DNA from: a bacterium
GTDB taxonomy: Bacteria > Bacteroidota > Ignavibacteria > Kapaibacteriales > UBA7675
Length of the DNA: 43,924 nucleotides
Assembly (NCBI GenBank): GCA_030430495.1
Contig: JAUIKM010000017.1
Coordinates: forward strand, 72,121 to 116,044
Direction: 5' to 3'
Shown here: positions 28,390-36,391 of the stretch, piece after piece
How positions within the stretch are numbered: position 1 is the stretch's first letter
Layout: every line of letters begins with the position of its first letter
Notes under the pieces: generated by a model
Seen by the model: only the letters and a program-made list of their open reading frames with translations
Told to the model about the DNA's origin: nothing
The model's database searches: none
Translations under genes and position numbers: made by a program

Positions 28390-28417
28390 TTGCCATACTT
28401 GCCAACTGCAATATAAT
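28390..28417 (+). promoter_or_regulatory. Promoter of the PLD-helicase/methyltransferase operon
   Basis: TTGCCA (28390-28395), 16-bp spacer, TATAAT (28412-28417, perfect consensus), in an AT-rich stretch unlike the surroundings. The leader is about 185 bases and has a 10-bp palindrome AATACGTATT (28448-28457) about 25-30 bp after the predicted start, a possible operator. The intergenic region 28290-28610 holds nothing else I can support. Confidence 0.55.
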
Positions 28418-28610: not shown

Positions 28611-31600
28611 ATGCCCCGCATTTTCGACAATATCAAACTCGACCTCGGCGACGCCTTGCGCGCGTCGTTTGCACAAGCCTACAGCGCCGATATCTGCGTG
28701 GGTTATTTCAATTTGAGAGGCTGGGATGTTCTGTCAGATCTGGTCGATCGCTTCGTCGGTGGAGAAAGCCTGCAATGTCGTTTGTTGGTGGGGCGCAACA
28801 TCACGCCGGCCGACGAAGTGCGCTGGGAATACGAAGCGGCTTCGGAACCCGCCGTGGACCGGCGCACCACCATTCTCGAGCGCAATGCGCTGCTCGAAAG
28901 TTACCACCAACAGTTGATCGTCGGCGGCCAGAGCGAACAACAACTGCGCTCCCTGCGCCTCCTGCGCAGGCACATGCGCGAAGGCAAGGTCAGGATTAAA
29001 ATGCACGCCCGCGGCGCGCTGCACGCCAAACTGTACATCCTGCACCGGCACGATCCGGACAACCCGCGCACGGCCTTTCTGGGCAGCTCGAACCTGACGT
29101 TGAGCGGCTTGCGCGGCAGCGGCGAACTCAATATCGATGTGCTGGATCACGATGCCACGGAGACCCTGCACCAGTGGTTTGAAGACCGCTGGAACGACCA
29201 GTTCTGCATTGATATTACTGAAGAACTTATCGGGCTCATCGACCGCAGCTGGGCCACCGCCGACACGATCCCGCCCTATCACATTTACCTGAAAATGGTG
29301 CATCACATCTCGCGTCAGGCGCGCGAAGGCATCAACTCCTTTTCCATCCCGCAGGTTTTTCGCGAGGTGTTGCTTGAATTCCAGCAGAAAGCCGTGCAAA
29401 TCGCCGCTCAGTATCTGCACGAACGCCGCGGCGTGCTGATAGGCGACGTCGTCGGCCTCGGCAAAACGCTCATGGCCTCCGCGCTCGTTAAAATCATGCG
29501 CGACGACTGCAACTTCCGCGCCCTGATTATTTGCCCGCCCAACCTGACCGACATGTGGCGCGAGTACGAGTCACGCTACGACCTCGGCGCTAGGGTCATG
29601 TCGATTTCCCGCGTCCAGAACGAATTGCACGAACTCCCCGGTTTGTATCAGGTAGTTCTCATCGACGAAAGTCACAATTTGCGCAATCGCGACGGCAAAC
29701 GTTATGCTGCTATCCGCGACTTTATAAACCAGAACGACAGCCGCTGCATCCTGATTTCCGCCACTCCCTACAACAAAACCTACCGCGATCTTTCGAATCA
29801 ACTGCGATTGTTCGTCGACGAAAAAGCCGATCTGGGAATCCGCCCGGAGGAATTCCTGCGTGAGTATGATGGCGGCGGCGAGAGGTTCGCCCTGGAAAAT
29901 CAAAAAGATCCGCGCACGCTCGAAGCCTTTGAACACAGCGAACACTCGGCCGACTGGCGACAATTGATCAGCCTCTTTATGGTTCGCCGTACGCGCAGTT
30001 TTATCAAAAAAAACTACGCCAAACGCGACCCGAACGGCGACTTCTTCCTTGAATTCAGCAATGGAGGACGGGCGCGCTTTCCCAATCGCCGGGCGCTGCG
30101 CGTGAACTTCAACAGCAATGCCGACGACCCCGACGACAGGTATGCCCGACTCTACAGCGAATCCGTCGTGGACGTCATTACCGACCTGCATCTGCCGCGC
30201 TACGGACTCGGCAACTACGTCGATGACGACGGTGCTTTGTTAAACAGGGAAGAACAGACAATAGTTAAAGACCTGACGACAGGCGGACGGCGACTGATAG
30301 GATTCAGCCGCACCAACCTTTTTAAACGCCTTGAAAGCTCCGGAACAGCCTTCCTGCTTTCCATCGAGCGGCACGTCGCACGCAATCGCGTCTTTCTCCA
30401 CGCCCTGGAAAATGATCTGCCCCTGCCTGTCGGCCCGCAGGACGCGTCCATGCTTTACGACACACGCATCGAAGATGCGGACCCGAATGCCGAAGACTAC
30501 AGCCCGGACGCCACGGTTCTGTACGATGAAGAGATTTCGGAGACGGGAGACCTTAAACAAACACCGGACAATCAAGACACAGGCGATTCGACGCGGCAAC
30601 ACAGGAACAAGGACAGAGACAAGTCTGAGCAACAGGACGATCCGCGGTCGAGAGCCGCGCGTACCTACGAATTTTACCGCTCCGTCATCGCGCACAAGTT
30701 TCGCTGGTTGCGCGCCGACGTGTTTACCCCCGAACTGGCGCTGCACCTGCGCAGAGACTGCGAAGCGCTTGAAGAGATCCTGATGGCGCACTCGCCCTGG
30801 CAGGCGCGGCACGACAATAAATTGCACGCCCTGCGCAGCCTTCTGCTGGAGCGGCATGCCGATCAAAAAGTCCTCGTGTTTTCGCAGTTCGCCGATACGA
30901 TCGAATACCTGGAACAGGAGCTGCGCAGCGATCTCCCGGAAGACGAAATGCAGGCCGTTAGCGGACGCAAAGGCGATCCCGGTTCACTGGCGCGGCGCTT
31001 CAGCCCGAAGTCCAACAGCACCAAACACAAGAACAAACAAAACAGCGACGAGAACGACAGTCAACAGCCGGTCAACAACGACGATCAAAACAGTGAAAAA
31101 CCGAGCGAACTGCGCGTTCTGCTCGCCACCGATATGTTAAGCGAAGGACAAAACCTGCAGGATGCGCACATCGTCGTTAACTACGACCTGCCATGGGCCA
31201 TCATCAGGTTGATCCAGCGCGCCGGACGCGTGGACCGCATCGGCCAGGAAGCGTCCAATATCCTCTGTTATACCTTCTGGCCGGCGGACGGAATCGAAAA
31301 AATTATCAGCTTGCGCAGCCGACTGAGCGCACGTCTCGATCAGAATGCGCAGGTGGTCGGCGCGGACGAACTCTTTTTCGACGATCAGAAACACGCACAG
31401 CCGCTGCACGACCTGTACAATGAGTCCACCGGCATTCTGGACGAAGAGGACGACGATGACAATGACCTTGTTTCCCAGGCCCTGGGCGTCTGGGATGCCG
31501 CCGTCAAAGACAATCCAAAACTTAAACAGACCATTGAGCGTCTGCCGGACAAAGTCTTTTCGGCCAAAGCCGTCCAGCCGCAGGATCCTCCCGCCGGACT

Positions 31601-32132
31601 GCTGGCTTATATCCAGATCGGCTCTTCCAGCTACGGTCTCGTTCGCCTGGACGCCGGCGGCAATATTATCACCGAAGCTTATGCCGACGTGCTGCGCGCC
31701 GCCGAATGCCTACCCGACGAACCCGCGGTGGAACGCGCCGTTAACCACTTCGACCTCGTCTCAATCGCCGAAAATTTATTGACAAACAAACAGGGTTTTC
31801 GCGAAGGACAGCTCGGGCCGCCGCGCGCCATCAGACGGCGCATCTACGAAAAAGTTAAATACATGATCGACGGCCGACAGGCAAACGACGCCGTTCGGAC
31901 CGACGACCGCCGCAGCGCCCTCGAAGCAGTGTTGCAGGCGCTCTACCGCGCCCCGCTGCGCGAACAGGCCCGCCAGAGCATCGCCCGGCAGCTGCGCGCT
32001 AAAATCGACGAAACGACGCTGGCGGACATGTTAATCGAGTTGCACGATAACGGCCGCCTGGTGCGCGACGCCGCTCCGCGACGGCAGATAGCGGGCCGCA
32101 TCATTTGTTCACTGGGGTTGAACAATGTTTGA
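28611..32132 (+). CDS. PLD-nuclease / SNF2-family helicase (defence type)
   Basis: The protein has 1173 residues. The N-terminal domain is a phospholipase D-type nuclease: H138-x-K140 (LHAKLYIL) then G158-S-S-N161 (GSSNLTLSG), a half-HKD that would dimerise to form one active site. The SF2/SNF2 motor follows: Walker A GDVVGLGKT (278-286), DESH (352-355), SATP (383-386), TDMLSEGQNLQDA, and QRAGRVDRIGQ (869-879). Two hydrophilic, low-complexity inserts (about residues 610-685 and 798-832) interrupt the motor. The C-terminal ~250 residues have no motif I recognise. This kind of helicase travels with large adenine methyltransferases in restriction-like systems; its closest named relative by content is DrmD (with DrmC's PLD domain fused). 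The ATG at 28611 is preferred over the TTG at 28599. Confidence 0.88.
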   Translation: MPRIFDNIKLDLGDALRASFAQAYSADICVGYFNLRGWDVLSDLVDRFVGGESLQCRLLVGRNITPADEVRWEYEAASEPAVDRRTTILERNALLESYHQQLIVGGQSEQQLRSLRLLRRHMREGKVRIKMHARGALHAKLYILHRHDPDNPRTAFLGSSNLTLSGLRGSGELNIDVLDHDATETLHQWFEDRWNDQFCIDITEELIGLIDRSWATADTIPPYHIYLKMVHHISRQAREGINSFSIPQVFREVLLEFQQKAVQIAAQYLHERRGVLIGDVVGLGKTLMASALVKIMRDDCNFRALIICPPNLTDMWREYESRYDLGARVMSISRVQNELHELPGLYQVVLIDESHNLRNRDGKRYAAIRDFINQNDSRCILISATPYNKTYRDLSNQLRLFVDEKADLGIRPEEFLREYDGGGERFALENQKDPRTLEAFEHSEHSADWRQLISLFMVRRTRSFIKKNYAKRDPNGDFFLEFSNGGRARFPNRRALRVNFNSNADDPDDRYARLYSESVVDVITDLHLPRYGLGNYVDDDGALLNREEQTIVKDLTTGGRRLIGFSRTNLFKRLESSGTAFLLSIERHVARNRVFLHALENDLPLPVGPQDASMLYDTRIEDADPNAEDYSPDATVLYDEEISETGDLKQTPDNQDTGDSTRQHRNKDRDKSEQQDDPRSRAARTYEFYRSVIAHKFRWLRADVFTPELALHLRRDCEALEEILMAHSPWQARHDNKLHALRSLLLERHADQKVLVFSQFADTIEYLEQELRSDLPEDEMQAVSGRKGDPGSLARRFSPKSNSTKHKNKQNSDENDSQQPVNNDDQNSEKPSELRVLLATDMLSEGQNLQDAHIVVNYDLPWAIIRLIQRAGRVDRIGQEASNILCYTFWPADGIEKIISLRSRLSARLDQNAQVVGADELFFDDQKHAQPLHDLYNESTGILDEEDDDDNDLVSQALGVWDAAVKDNPKLKQTIERLPDKVFSAKAVQPQDPPAGLLAYIQIGSSSYGLVRLDAGGNIITEAYADVLRAAECLPDEPAVERAVNHFDLVSIAENLLTNKQGFREGQLGPPRAIRRRIYEKVKYMIDGRQANDAVRTDDRRSALEAVLQALYRAPLREQARQSIARQLRAKIDETTLADMLIELHDNGRLVRDAAPRRQIAGRIICSLGLNNV

Positions 32133-32238
32133 CCGCGCATTGATCCGCCGCCTGCGCAACAACTGCCTCCCCGGCATTCTGGATGCCGGTTCCACGTGTT
32201 ATCCGCGATCATACTATACCGGAATGTGCCATGAGTGA
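32125..32238 (+). CDS. Possible 37-codon bridging ORF (remnant?)
   Basis: An ATG at 32125 overlaps the end of the helicase gene by 8 bp and the frame stops at 32238, overlapping the start of the methyltransferase gene by 8 bp. The peptide begins MFDRALIRRLRNNCLPG. The opening MFD..LI..LRN..P resembles, from memory, the N-terminus of short CHC2 (primase-type) zinc-finger proteins found beside mobile ATPases, but the zinc finger itself is absent, so this may be a decayed remnant, a coupling ORF, or chance. Confidence 0.25.
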   Translation: MFDRALIRRLRNNCLPGILDAGSTCYPRSYYTGMCHE

Positions 32239-35200
32239 TGTGTTTGACTTTCAGGGCGCGGGCAAAGCGCTACAGAGTTTTCAGCTCGACAAACTCTTCA
32301 TCGAGTATCTGGGTTGGGAAAACCCGCACGATTCTCAACAGAAAGAGTACCAGTGCGGCGAGAGCGGCGAGAGCGGCAACACATACCTTTACCGCGAAAT
32401 CGCCGCACTCGGTGAAATTCCCGCCTTTGAAATTCGCAGTGCAAACGGCAATCTTCCGCAGTCGGACAGCGACATACGCGAGGTGTACAAACACATCAAC
32501 TTCTCCAAGATCGAACTCCTGTTGATATTCACCAATGACGAGTCGCGCCACACGCGCGGCTCCATCTGGCTGTGGGTTAAACACTCGGAAGGAAACGGAG
32601 AGGTCTTCCGACGTCACAGTTTCTACAGCTACCAGAGCGGTCACGAACTGCTGAACAAACTTTCCAGGCTGTTTGTGTCGTATAAGGAACTCGACGCCTG
32701 GGACAGACCCGAGTCCAGCAAATCCGCCTTTGTGCATCGACTCAGGAAACTGAGCGACGCGTTCGACGTCGAAAAAGTCACGCGCGAGTTCTACGACAAA
32801 TTCAAGATGATCCACGATGCATTTGTCGACAACATCGAAGGCATCGACAATGAACACGACCGGCGCTGGTACGCTTCGGTCCTGCTCAACCGCATCATGT
32901 TCATCTACTTTCTGCAGCGCCGCCATTTTATGGGCAATGACGAACCCGACTATCTGCGGCAGCGCTTTGTACAACATTCGCGCAACAAGGATAAACAACA
33001 GTCATTCTATAAAACATTTCTGCGTCCCCTGTTTTTCATCGGACTGGCGCTTAAACAGGGCTACAAACAGCTCGACGGCGCGGTCTTTGGACAGGTCCCC
33101 TATCTCAACGGCGGCCTGTTCCTGCAACACGAAATCGAGGAACGCTACGGCGACAAGATCAACGTGGCCGACAGCCTCTTCGAAGAGTTGTTTAAAATTC
33201 TGGACACCTACGAGTGGACGCTGAACGATGACGCGGGCTCCGACGGCCGCACCATCAGCCCGGCCATCCTGGGTTACATCTTTGAAAAATACATCAACCA
33301 GAAACAGTTCGGCGCATACTACACGCGGCCGGAAATAACCACCTATTTATGTGAACAGTGCATCCACGCCGCCGTGATGGACAAGCTGCGCGCACTCGAC
33401 CTCAAGGATTGCGACGGGGAGCGCATCAATCTCGATCAACTGAGCATCAAATCCACACTGCCTGAGACGCTCATGCACATGAACGTCGAGACGGCCCTGC
33501 TGCTGGACAAAAAGGTCCTGCCGAATCTATCCGTGCTCGATCCGGCCTGCGGCTCCGGCGCTTTCCTCATTGCCGCAATGAAAACGCTGGAAGGCGTTTA
33601 CCGCGCCGCCTGGCGAACCATCTATGCCGCGGGAAGCGGTAAAAGCAATGATCCGCTGGCACACAAAGCCGTCAACTTCCTGAAAGATTTACTCATCGAG
33701 TTAAAAGTGAAAGGCAGCCTGCCGGAAGATGCGGTGGTTGAAAACATCAACAGCGACTACCTGATAAAAAAACGCATCATCATCGACAATCTCTACGGCG
33801 TCGACATCATGGACGAAGCCATTGAGATCGCGCGCCTGCGTTTGTTTCTCGATCTGATTGCCGTGGCCGCTCCCGGCACTGCGATCGAAGCCCTGCCGAA
33901 CGTCGACTTTAACATTCTTGCCGGCAACTCACTGATTGGCCTGTTAAACATACAGCCCGAAAAAATTCAGGAAAGGAACAGCTCCGGAAATGCGGAACTG
34001 GCCAACCTGGAGGAACCACTGCGAGAGTACCACCGCCTGCGCGATCAGTACAAACAATCGCTGGAAGATGAGTTTCCGCTGGTCGAATTGCGCAACAAAG
34101 CCCACGAATATCGCCGCACCGCCATGGAACTGCTCAACGGCGGCATGCTGCGGGAATTCGCCGACCTCAAAATTTCCTACGAACGGGAACAGTGGGACAC
34201 ACACAAAAACAAAGCCGGCAAACGACTTAAACGCCCGGTCAATGTGGCCGATCTGGACAACCTGCGCCCGCTGCACTGGGGCATCGACTTCCAGAAAATC
34301 ATGGAGTGCTCGCAGCCGGAAAGCGACAACTCCGACTTAAGACAATTGCCCACAGTCGAGGAGCGCGAGAAGATTCGCGCCGAAAGAAAACAGCGGCGTC
34401 TGGCGGCCTGCCGCAAGGAAGAGGGTTTTGACGTCATTCTGGCCAACCCGCCCTGGGAGGCGTTTAAACCGCAGGACAAGGAGTTTTTTGCCGCGCACTC
34501 CGAACTCGTTAAACAGGGTAAAAAAACCATGCGCATCGAGGATTTCCTCAAGCGCAAAAAAGACCTGTTAAAAGACGACGCCATCCGCACCGCCTACGAA
34601 GACTACATGAGCCAGTTCCCGTTCATGAGCAAGTACTTCCGCAGCGCGCACGACTATCAACACCAGAGCGTTGAAGTCAACGGCCGCAAAACCGGCAGCG
34701 ATATCAACCTCTACAAACTTTTTGTCGAACGCTGTTACAATCTGCTGCGCGAAGACGGCCACGCCGGTCTCGTGCTGCCCGGCGGCATTTACTCCGACCT
34801 GGGAGCTACCGGGCTGCGCCGCCTGCTGCTGCATCGGACGCGCATTAAGGGACTGTTTGGATTTGAGAACCGCAAGGGCATATTCGAAGGTGTGCACCGC
34901 AGCTTCAAGTTCATCGTGTTAACACTGCAAAAAGGCGGAGAGACCAAAGACTTTCCGGCGGCTTTCATGCGGCATGATGTGAAGGAGTTGGAGGCTAGCG
35001 ATTCCAGCTCATTTCCGAAGCTATCGCCTCAATTTGTTGAAATGTTCTCTCGTGGCACTTACTCATTTCCTGAAATAGACACTAATTCAGCTCCACCCAT
35101 TTTAATAAAAATGCACGATCACCCGAGGCTGGATAATGAGAAGGTTGTTAACAACCGCTTCGTTCTAACCTCTGAAATTCACATGACGAATGATAGCACA

Positions 35201-36391
35201 ATATTTGAGATCAAAGAATCAATTGACCATCTGCCGTTGGTGGAAGGAAAAATGATCCATCAATTTAGCTTCACAACATCAGAGCAGAGATACTGGATAC
35301 CAACTGATAAAGCTAAGACAAAGTTTTCCAAACGCTTTCTGGATAACAATTCTTATCCATTTGAACAGTTCAGAATTGCTATCAGAGATGTGGCGCGGAA
35401 TACCGATAGTCGAACGCTGATCGTGACAATAATACCAAAGGGAACACTGGCAGGGAACACCTTGAACGTATCCCAAAGTCTGGAGTCGTTCGGCCAACTC
35501 TACCTGACTGCGATATTAAACTCATTTGCGCTGGACTATGTAATCCGCCTCAAAGTCAATGCCCACTGCAACATGTTCTACATCTACCAACTCCCCGTCC
35601 CGCGCATCGACAAGAACCACTGGGCTTTTCGTCCGCTGGTGGAAGGCGCGGCGCGGCTGATCTGCACCAGCCCCGAGTACGACGAACTGGCGGCCGAAGT
35701 CGGGCTGGGCGATCACACACATGGCGCGCACGATCCGGCGGAACGGGCCGCCATCCGCGCCCGTCTGGACGGCATCGTTGCACATCTCTACAACCTGAAC
35801 AGCGAGGAATTCAGGTATATCCTGACGACCTTCCCGATCGTCGACCAGCAGATCAAAGACGACGCGCTGGCGGCCTTCGAAGCGCTGGCGGCCAATCCCG
35901 AAGTGCTGCTGTTAACGGATCGCGGCGAAGGGCCGGACCTCGAATTTAAACAAATGGCCTGGGCCGCCCCTGCGCGCAAAGGACAGTCCCCCAAAGCCGG
36001 CGGCCTGCTGGAAGCGATAGCGTCGTTTTTAAACAGTTATGGCGGCGGCACGATTCTGCTGGGCGTGGCCGACGACGGAACGGTCACCGGTTTGCAGGAA
36101 GAATACCGTGCCGCCAATCCACAGAAAAACAACGCCGACGGTTTGATGCTGAGCCTCAGCAACAGCATGAAGGACAGCTTAAGTCTGGCGCAACCCGACG
36201 ACTACGTCAAAGTTGAGATTCAGACCATCCACACGCATGAAGTCGCCGTAATAAGAGTCGCTCCCGGCCCGGAGCCCGTCTACGTCGGCAATTCCGATGC
36301 GTTTTATGTTCGCGGTCTGGCCGGCAAACAGGAACTGCGCGGCAAGGAACGCGATGAATTCACGCGCAGGCGATTCAACAGCGGAGCCTGA
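32231..36391 (+). CDS. Large adenine-specific DNA methyltransferase fused to Schlafen-type AlbA_2 domain
   Basis: The protein has 1386 residues from the ATG at 32231. Residues about 1-330 form the N-terminal region common to Eco57I/PglX/DrmMI-like enzymes (LFIEYLGWE; helical stretch WYASVLLNRIMFIYFLQRR). The catalytic domain carries AdoMet motif I DPACGSGAFL (from residue 437), GVDIMDEAIEIARLRL, and motif IV NPPW (from 739), so N6-adenine methylation is expected. The target-recognition part (about residues 915-1098) is strikingly AT-rich. The C-terminal ~150 residues form an AlbA_2/Schlafen domain: E1233 and E1238 (EGPDLEFK), FLNSYGGGTILLGVADDGTVTGL (D1281/D1282), and FYVRGLAGKQEL. No PD-(D/E)xK nuclease is obvious. 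It is translated right after the helicase and probably co-transcribed. Confidence 0.88.
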   Translation: MSDVFDFQGAGKALQSFQLDKLFIEYLGWENPHDSQQKEYQCGESGESGNTYLYREIAALGEIPAFEIRSANGNLPQSDSDIREVYKHINFSKIELLLIFTNDESRHTRGSIWLWVKHSEGNGEVFRRHSFYSYQSGHELLNKLSRLFVSYKELDAWDRPESSKSAFVHRLRKLSDAFDVEKVTREFYDKFKMIHDAFVDNIEGIDNEHDRRWYASVLLNRIMFIYFLQRRHFMGNDEPDYLRQRFVQHSRNKDKQQSFYKTFLRPLFFIGLALKQGYKQLDGAVFGQVPYLNGGLFLQHEIEERYGDKINVADSLFEELFKILDTYEWTLNDDAGSDGRTISPAILGYIFEKYINQKQFGAYYTRPEITTYLCEQCIHAAVMDKLRALDLKDCDGERINLDQLSIKSTLPETLMHMNVETALLLDKKVLPNLSVLDPACGSGAFLIAAMKTLEGVYRAAWRTIYAAGSGKSNDPLAHKAVNFLKDLLIELKVKGSLPEDAVVENINSDYLIKKRIIIDNLYGVDIMDEAIEIARLRLFLDLIAVAAPGTAIEALPNVDFNILAGNSLIGLLNIQPEKIQERNSSGNAELANLEEPLREYHRLRDQYKQSLEDEFPLVELRNKAHEYRRTAMELLNGGMLREFADLKISYEREQWDTHKNKAGKRLKRPVNVADLDNLRPLHWGIDFQKIMECSQPESDNSDLRQLPTVEEREKIRAERKQRRLAACRKEEGFDVILANPPWEAFKPQDKEFFAAHSELVKQGKKTMRIEDFLKRKKDLLKDDAIRTAYEDYMSQFPFMSKYFRSAHDYQHQSVEVNGRKTGSDINLYKLFVERCYNLLREDGHAGLVLPGGIYSDLGATGLRRLLLHRTRIKGLFGFENRKGIFEGVHRSFKFIVLTLQKGGETKDFPAAFMRHDVKELEASDSSSFPKLSPQFVEMFSRGTYSFPEIDTNSAPPILIKMHDHPRLDNEKVVNNRFVLTSEIHMTNDSTIFEIKESIDHLPLVEGKMIHQFSFTTSEQRYWIPTDKAKTKFSKRFLDNNSYPFEQFRIAIRDVARNTDSRTLIVTIIPKGTLAGNTLNVSQSLESFGQLYLTAILNSFALDYVIRLKVNAHCNMFYIYQLPVPRIDKNHWAFRPLVEGAARLICTSPEYDELAAEVGLGDHTHGAHDPAERAAIRARLDGIVAHLYNLNSEEFRYILTTFPIVDQQIKDDALAAFEALAANPEVLLLTDRGEGPDLEFKQMAWAAPARKGQSPKAGGLLEAIASFLNSYGGGTILLGVADDGTVTGLQEEYRAANPQKNNADGLMLSLSNSMKDSLSLAQPDDYVKVEIQTIHTHEVAVIRVAPGPEPVYVGNSDAFYVRGLAGKQELRGKERDEFTRRRFNSGA

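What the first reader, a model, noticed from the sequence alone, without database searches (positions are those of the whole stretch)
28611..36391. Two-gene defence operon: PLD-SNF2 helicase plus methyltransferase-Schlafen fusion
The pair combines a PLD nuclease, a SNF2 motor, an N6-adenine methyltransferase and a Schlafen-type AlbA_2 domain in two polypeptides. By content it resembles DISARM class 1 (DrmD, DrmMI, DrmC) but with PLD fused to the motor, no DrmA/DrmB and an added AlbA_2 domain. It could be a self-contained restriction-modification system in which methylation marks self, the helicase-PLD cuts foreign DNA, and AlbA_2 acts as an extra effector.
Basis: partly seen in the sequence, partly recalled or inferred. 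Interest (0 to 1): 0.85.

Follow-up and report, generated by a model that had tools for sequence, protein, structure and literature searches.

The report
Two-protein motor-nuclease restriction-modification system
Two neighbouring genes, found side by side in bacteria of many phyla, look like a compact immune system in which one protein marks the cell's own DNA and the other is a DNA motor fused to a nuclease; in this copy and a few others the marking protein also carries a Schlafen-type domain.

Summary
Window 28611-32132 encodes a PLD nuclease fused to a SNF2 motor, and 32183-36391 an MmeI/DrdV-like N6-adenine methyltransferase with a C-terminal Schlafen AlbA_2 domain. It is not DISARM: DUF1998/MZB and DUF499 are absent from the whole genome, and the MTase resembles Type IIG/IIL enzymes more than DrmMI. 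The pair is a recurrent unit. Of 80 loci with enough downstream sequence, 73 carry a same-strand MTase of at least 900 aa within 3 kb; six more have a truncated, split, fragmented or remnant one, and one has it upstream. PLD His/Asn/Glu and the motor motifs are essentially invariant in 103 homologues; PLD Lys is lost once. The MTase's N-terminal region lacks conserved nuclease residues. Best reading: an ATP-dependent restriction-modification system, with marking and probably recognition in the MTase and cleavage by the PLD motor (like CglI/NgoAVII and Type III/ISP). AlbA_2 is an optional add-on: six C-terminal fusions (at least four gains or losses), plus one insertion inside the MTase where another homologue carries DUF559. 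That favours an effector role but does not prove it. No name for the pair was found in PADLOC 2023, NCBIfam 2026 or open-access papers. Defence activity is untested.

The parts
28390..28417 (+). sigma-70-like promoter match TTGCCA-16-TATAAT upstream of the pair
   Evidence: 11 of 12 consensus bases; weak evidence, 8 sites found versus 4.5 expected in shuffles
28611..32132 (+). P1: PLD nuclease - SNF2 motor protein (restriction subunit), 1173 aa
   Evidence: starts where most homologues start
28680..29192 (+). PLDc_2 / NgoFVII-type PLD nuclease domain
   Evidence: PLDc_2 E=2.6e-10, RE_NgoFVII 1.6e-5
29022..29126 (+). PLD active-site residues H138, K140, N161, E172 (P1 numbering from 28611)
   Evidence: H, N, E in 103/103 homologues; K in 102/103
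29379..29786 (+). SNF2 motor, first RecA-like lobe (Walker A GLGKT, DESH box)
   Evidence: motif residues conserved in 97-103 of 103
30819..31244 (+). SNF2 motor, second lobe (Helicase_C, QRAGRVDR)
   Evidence: E=6.3e-16; model matches SNF2 ATPases Z about 17-19
31389..32129 (+). C-terminal alpha/beta region of P1 shared by full-length homologues; role unknown, possibly contact with the MTase
   Evidence: blastp of this region alone matches the full-length homologues
32183..36391 (+). P2: MmeI-like N6-adenine MTase with C-terminal AlbA_2; likely true start ATG 32231
32270..32710 (+). N-terminal region of P2 at the place of the MmeI/DrdV nuclease domain; no conserved (D/E)xK, probably inactive
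   Evidence: model strand/helix order; MmeI and DrdV align only from residue about 195 on
33539..33559 (+). SAM-binding motif I, DPACGSG
   Evidence: read in sequence; aligned
34445..34456 (+). catalytic motif IV NPPW (N6-adenine MTase)
   Evidence: read in sequence
34970..35857 (+). C-terminal part of the MTase, predicted target-recognition region (boundaries approximate)
   Evidence: structure matches to CamA, MmeI, DrdV and LlaBIII run to model residues 1186-1200
35927..36334 (+). SLFN_AlbA_2 domain with E, E and D of the Schlafen-type motif
   Evidence: motif acids conserved in 7 of 7 MTase-linked AlbA_2 domains

Best explanation
An ATP-dependent restriction-modification system of two proteins. 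P2 is the modification subunit, and probably the recognition subunit: an MmeI/DrdV-like N6-adenine MTase that should methylate one strand of an asymmetric site and whose own N-terminal nuclease domain appears to be dead. P1 is the restriction subunit: a SNF2 double-strand DNA motor carrying an N-terminal PLD nuclease. Unmodified sites on incoming DNA would start ATP-driven translocation by P1, possibly together with P2. The metal-independent PLD site would then cut, probably after two complexes meet or dimerise, as proposed for CglI. Methylation by P2 spares host DNA. AlbA_2 is an optional extra domain, most likely an additional nuclease or nucleic-acid-binding effector. Shown here: domains, intact motifs, near-constant pairing, repeated gain or loss of AlbA_2. 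Inferred: defence function, translocation, cleavage, complex formation, specificity, AlbA_2 activity.
For: Pairing: 73 of 80 helicase loci with enough room have an MTase of at least 900 aa on the same strand within 3 kb; the other seven have a truncated, split, fragmented or remnant MTase, or one upstream. PLD and motor residues near invariant in 103 homologues. MTase homology to MmeI (E 4.4e-41, profile search); structural matches to BrxX, CamA, MmeI, DrdV and Type ISP LlaBIII/LlaGI, Z about 22-26. The N-terminal region has no conserved (D/E)xK, so cleavage falls to the PLD. Some flanking genes of homologues belong to other PADLOC-listed defence families, none dominant. Plasmid-borne, also on viral contigs, patchy among relatives (6 of 41 genomes). 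Precedent: PLD plus SF2 ATPase plus MTase in CglI/NgoAVII, where mutating the HxK histidine abolishes cleavage (PMC4267653). AlbA_2: acidic motif conserved 7/7; L101 holds AlbA_2 and L128 a DUF559 domain at the same insertion slot.
Against: No experiment and no methylome. Both window proteins sit on unusually long branches and depart from conserved columns far more than other members (29 of 297 versus median 3.5; 22 of 187 versus 0-7), so this copy may be under relaxed or altered selection although catalytic motifs are intact. The pair is not in a defence island here and its GC matches the host. One full-length helicase keeps its PLD residues beside a 605-aa MTase followed by IS elements (L040).
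Confidence: 0.75

Rival explanations
1. A reduced or variant DISARM class 1 system.
For: Same broad ingredients: SNF2 helicase, MTase, PLD; weak profile similarity of P1 to DrmD and of P2 to DrmMI.
Against: Scores far under DrmD cut-offs (119 of 610 bits); P2 nearer type IIG (303 versus 67 bits); DUF1998/MZB absent from the genome; no DISARM family among the commonest neighbours of homologues.
Confidence: 0.03
2. A stripped-down BREX-related Type 2 (DUF499/DUF3780) system, whose helicase is also an HKD-Snf2 fusion.
For: PMC12839542 describes HKD-endoDNase fused to a Swi2/Snf2 helicase plus N6-MTase as an RM-like effector; best PADLOC hit of P1 is 'HKD+Snf2'.
Against: DUF499 is absent from the whole genome and not among the commonest neighbour families of homologues; P1 reaches 134 of the 1100 bits required by the NCBIfam PLD anti-phage model. 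Which system that model stands for was not checked.
Confidence: 0.08
3. AlbA_2 is not a nuclease but a nucleic-acid-binding or targeting module that helps the MTase or the complex engage DNA.
For: Many bacterial AlbA_2 proteins are annotated as regulators or ATP-binding proteins (general knowledge); the fusion is adjacent to the predicted target-recognition region; no solved structure matched by sequence.
Against: All three acidic motif residues conserved in 7 of 7; in another homologue the equivalent insertion slot holds a DUF559 domain.
Confidence: 0.4
4. This copy is a modification or epigenetic locus whose restriction half is decaying.
For: Long branches and many private changes in both proteins; decayed relatives exist: L037 has PLD K to D plus a 285-aa MTase remnant, L051 has both genes broken.
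Against: Two uninterrupted ORFs of 1173 and 1402 codons; all catalytic motifs intact in P1 and P2.
Confidence: 0.1

Closest known systems
CglI / NgoAVII restriction-modification systems (PMC4267653, PMC5737866)
   Same: PLD-superfamily HxK nuclease working with an SF2 ATPase plus a DNA MTase; ATP-dependent
   Different: There the MTase makes 5-methylcytosine, nuclease and ATPase are separate proteins, and the nuclease carries its own B3 recognition domain; here PLD and SNF2 are fused and the MTase is an MmeI-like m6A enzyme
Type III (Mod/Res) and Type ISP (LlaGI, LlaBIII) RM enzymes
   Same: Motor-nuclease plus m6A MTase; P2 superposes on the coupler-MTase-recognition part of LlaBIII and LlaGI (Z about 23)
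   Different: PLD instead of PD-(D/E)XK; two polypeptides unlike ISP; MmeI-like rather than Mod-like MTase
Type IIL/IIG enzymes MmeI and DrdV
   Same: P2 core is homologous to MmeI and superposes on MmeI and DrdV
   Different: N-terminal nuclease residues not conserved; cleavage apparently moved to a partner protein; extra AlbA_2
BREX-related Type 2 systems (PMC12839542)
   Same: HKD nuclease fused to a Swi2/Snf2 helicase with an N6-MTase
   Different: No DUF499 ATPase in this genome and no DUF3780 found in the window; MTase is MmeI-like
DISARM class 1
   Same: Contains a SNF2 helicase, an MTase and a PLD protein
   Different: No DrmB-type DUF1998/MZB in this genome; profiles only remotely similar

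Membership tests
DISARM class 1 | DUF1998/MZB protein (DrmB) present | tested here: not met
   PF09369 gives no match in the whole genome, 95.6% complete; search validated on control genomes
DISARM class 1 | SNF2 protein belongs to the DrmD family | tested here: not met
   NF038317 119 bits against cut-off 610; NF038318 76 against 950
DISARM class 1 | DrmMI-type MTase | tested here: not met
   PADLOC DrmMI 67 bits versus IIG 303 bits
BREX | PglZ and BrxC in the locus | tested here: not met
   Window neighbours scanned; the only PglZ-domain gene of the genome lies on another contig; BrxC was not searched by itself
BREX-related (BR) systems | DUF499 ATPase | tested here: not met
   PF04465 no match in the genome
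ATP-dependent restriction-modification (Type III/ISP-like, broad sense) | motor plus nuclease plus cognate m6A MTase encoded together | tested here: met
ATP-dependent restriction-modification (Type III/ISP-like, broad sense) | motif-specific methylation that protects from cleavage by the motor-nuclease | not testable with these tools
   needs a methylome and restriction assays
Type IIL/IIG (MmeI) | homologous MTase core with helical connector and recognition domain | tested here: met
   E=4.4e-41; Z=22.4, rmsd 4.6, 620 residues aligned
Type IIL/IIG (MmeI) | active PD-(D/E)XK nuclease in the same chain | tested here: not met
   no conserved D...(D/E)xK in the N-terminal region of 30 homologues
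CglI/NgoAVII | PLD nuclease with B3 recognition domain | tested here: not met
   no B3 match in P1
Schlafen AlbA_2 nucleases | two Glu and one Asp of the active site | tested here: met
   ExxxxE and GVxD conserved in all 7 MTase-linked domains; the residue assignment to Schlafen nucleases is from memory
Schlafen AlbA_2 nucleases | RNase activity | not testable with these tools
   biochemistry needed

The most novel reading that the evidence does not exclude
The AlbA_2 domain is a switchable second effector built into a restriction-modification MTase. When the target site is engaged or restriction fails, the MTase-linked Schlafen nuclease attacks RNA or DNA and halts the infected cell. The repeated fusions, and the exchange with a DUF559 domain at one insertion slot, would mean that RM methylases serve as platforms for swappable effectors.
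Probability: 0.2. Interest if true: 0.75.

Novelty: new variant of a known kind. Interest (0 to 1): 0.5.

Why it matters
A two-gene RM-like unit found in many bacterial phyla, on plasmids and on viral contigs is poorly captured by PADLOC 2.0.0 and NCBIfam and is annotated as 'helicase-related protein' plus 'DNA methyltransferase'. Naming it would improve defence-system annotation. It suggests how an MmeI-type enzyme can lose its own nuclease and rely on a motor-nuclease partner. The AlbA_2/DUF559 exchange makes the idea of plug-in effectors on an RM methylase directly testable.

Tried and rejected
DISARM and BREX membership. An AlbA_2 gene standing alone beside the pair: the 'ATP-binding protein' next to the Anabaena pair is an AAA_21 ATPase, not AlbA_2; weak AlbA_2 signals lie near L069 and L089 only. 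A solved structure for this AlbA_2: none by sequence. Coupled decay of PLD and MTase as proof of RM logic: only L037 fits cleanly and L040 argues against, so it is not used. Recent horizontal transfer: GC and GC3 equal those of the neighbours and no flanking direct repeat of 11 bases or more was found. Literature for the pair: searches gave no description; the library is open-access only. I recalled a methylation motif for the Synechocystis homologue's MTase, but no held paper names it, so it is not used. In the structure re-alignments the N-terminal region of P2 and the PLD domain of P1 were barely tested.
Full report
Observation. The window holds two adjacent intact ORFs at the stated coordinates. 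P1 (28611-32132) carries PLDc_2, SNF2-rel_dom and Helicase_C; P2 (32183-36391) carries Eco57I/MmeI_Mtase/N6_Mtase and, at its C-terminus, SLFN_AlbA_2. Homologues of P2 begin near ATG 32231. Neighbouring window genes with Pfam matches are glycosyltransferases, a TonB receptor, an ABC transporter, a trypsin-like protease and repeat proteins, so the pair is not in a defence island.

Recurrence. It also finds plasmids of Synechocystis, Anabaena, Pelobacter, Rhodococcus and others. The 80 kept loci span many phyla, among them Chloroflexota, Acidobacteriota, Planctomycetota, Verrucomicrobiota, Cyanobacteriota and Pseudomonadota. Of 105 helicase loci, 80 had at least 3.3 kb downstream, and 73 of these have an MTase of at least 900 aa on the same strand within 3 kb. 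Of the seven exceptions, L096 (851 aa) and L040 (605 aa, followed by IS elements) have a shorter MTase, L115 and L116 a split one, L051 fragments (its helicase is broken too), L037 a 285-aa remnant, and L134 an MTase upstream. In the order of the window's organism the distribution is patchy: 6 of 41 relatives, and neither of two same-family genomes.

Is it DISARM or BREX? P1 reaches 119 bits against 610 for DrmD, and 134 against 1100 for the NCBIfam PLD anti-phage model; its best PADLOC match is a model labelled 'HKD+Snf2', 162 bits. P2 is best matched by type IIG models (303 bits; DrmMI 67). DUF1998/MZB and DUF499 are absent from the whole genome; a single PglZ-domain gene lies on another contig. 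Among 85 large flanking genes from 36 homologous loci, no PADLOC family occurs more than four times, and none of the 25 commonest is a DISARM or BREX protein (the rest of the 165 families were not displayed).

Anatomy and mechanism. PLD residues H138, N161 and E172 are present in 103 of 103 homologues and K140 in 102. The Walker lysine, DE of the DESH box, ATP of motif III and motif VI arginines are in all 103. The classical D of HxK(x)4D is absent; from my knowledge, BfiI-type PLD endonucleases also do without it. The model of P1 (mean pLDDT 76) matches SNF2 ATPases at Z about 17-19. The model of P2 without AlbA_2 (mean pLDDT 78) matches CamA, BrxX, MmeI, DrdV and the Type ISP enzymes LlaBIII and LlaGI at Z about 22-26, and the MmeI relation is also seen by sequence. 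The first roughly 175 residues of P2 lie where MmeI and DrdV have their nuclease. The region has a strand and helix order compatible with that fold but no conserved (D/E)xK in 30 homologues, so it is probably inactive; this is inference. The simplest reading is a Res/Mod-like division of labour: P2 marks and probably recognises, P1 translocates and cuts. CglI and NgoAVII are the biochemical precedent for a PLD nuclease working with an SF2 ATPase, with HxK mutants inactive (PMC4267653); communication between complexes along the DNA is proposed for CglI (PMC5737866).

AlbA_2. In the loci examined, C-terminal fusions occur in the window, L088 (L174 is the same contig), L113, L126, L127 and L175, that is 6 of 18 relatives of this MTase subtype. 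The tree needs six changes of this label, at least four of them forced by well-supported branches, so the domain has been gained or lost repeatedly. L101 carries AlbA_2 inside the MTase, between motif I and the next conserved block (266 residues where nearly all others have about 50-106). L128 has an insertion in the same slot (221), where Pfam finds DUF559/MTES_1575, the REase-related Vsr-like family. The two Glu and one Asp of the Schlafen motif are conserved in all seven domains. This supports an effector role without proving it; a nucleic-acid-binding role remains possible.

Oddities of this copy. Both window proteins lie on the longest branch of their trees, and they depart from otherwise conserved columns much more than other members (29 of 297 and 22 of 187), yet not at catalytic motifs. 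Since both proteins are affected, co-evolution, altered constraint or beginning decay are all possible. Base composition equals that of the neighbours.

Accessory genes. In a minority of homologous loci a small module sits between helicase and MTase: PIN, HEPN with a nucleotidyltransferase, ParE-like toxin, zeta toxin, AbiEi/AbiEii on the opposite strand, AAA_21 ATPase or GIY-YIG. The window has none.

Known or new. The parts and the logic are known: HKD-Snf2 effectors with N6-MTases occur in BREX-related Type 2 systems (PMC12839542), and PLD plus ATPase in CglI. I found no description of the minimal PLD-SNF2 plus MmeI-like MTase pair, nor of the MTase-AlbA_2 fusion, in the PADLOC, NCBIfam and open-access literature available. 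That is weak evidence of novelty because subscription papers, REBASE and newer databases were not searchable. I classify it as a new variant of a known kind. Defence activity, methylation motif, cleavage and AlbA_2 function are all untested.

Noticed in passing
L128:12832-16662 and L101:11414-15382: Same insertion slot of the MTase, after motif I, holds a DUF559/MTES_1575 nuclease-family domain in a Prochloron genome and AlbA_2 in a Pirellulaceae genome.
   Followed up: yes
L033, L060, L068, L086, L100, L109, L117, L118, L126 (gap between helicase and MTase): Toxin-antitoxin, HEPN-nucleotidyltransferase, zeta toxin, AbiE, AAA_21 or GIY-YIG genes lie between the two core genes.
   Followed up: partly
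L037:9001-13209: Dolichospermum plasmid copy with PLD lysine changed to aspartate and only a 285-aa MTase remnant.
   Followed up: partly
window 28611-36391: Both proteins of this copy are unusually diverged from the rest of the family although catalytic motifs are intact.
   Followed up: partly
window 32126-32240: Short ORF near ATG 32125 (MFDRALIRRLRNNCLPGILDAG...) overlaps the helicase stop and runs into the gap; may be a remnant of an in-between gene.
   Followed up: no
L181 (G000:C71:28899-29477), L182 (G000:C71:101448-101822), L002 (G000:C70:102715-103491): Same genome has a PglZ-domain protein, a second AlbA_2 gene and a second IIG-like MTase frame of 1281 aa elsewhere.
   Followed up: no
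L038, L039 (Rhodococcus plasmids): PLD-SNF2 relatives there pair with a clearly different, shorter MTase (915-921 aa) that shares mainly the N-terminal connector region.
   Followed up: no
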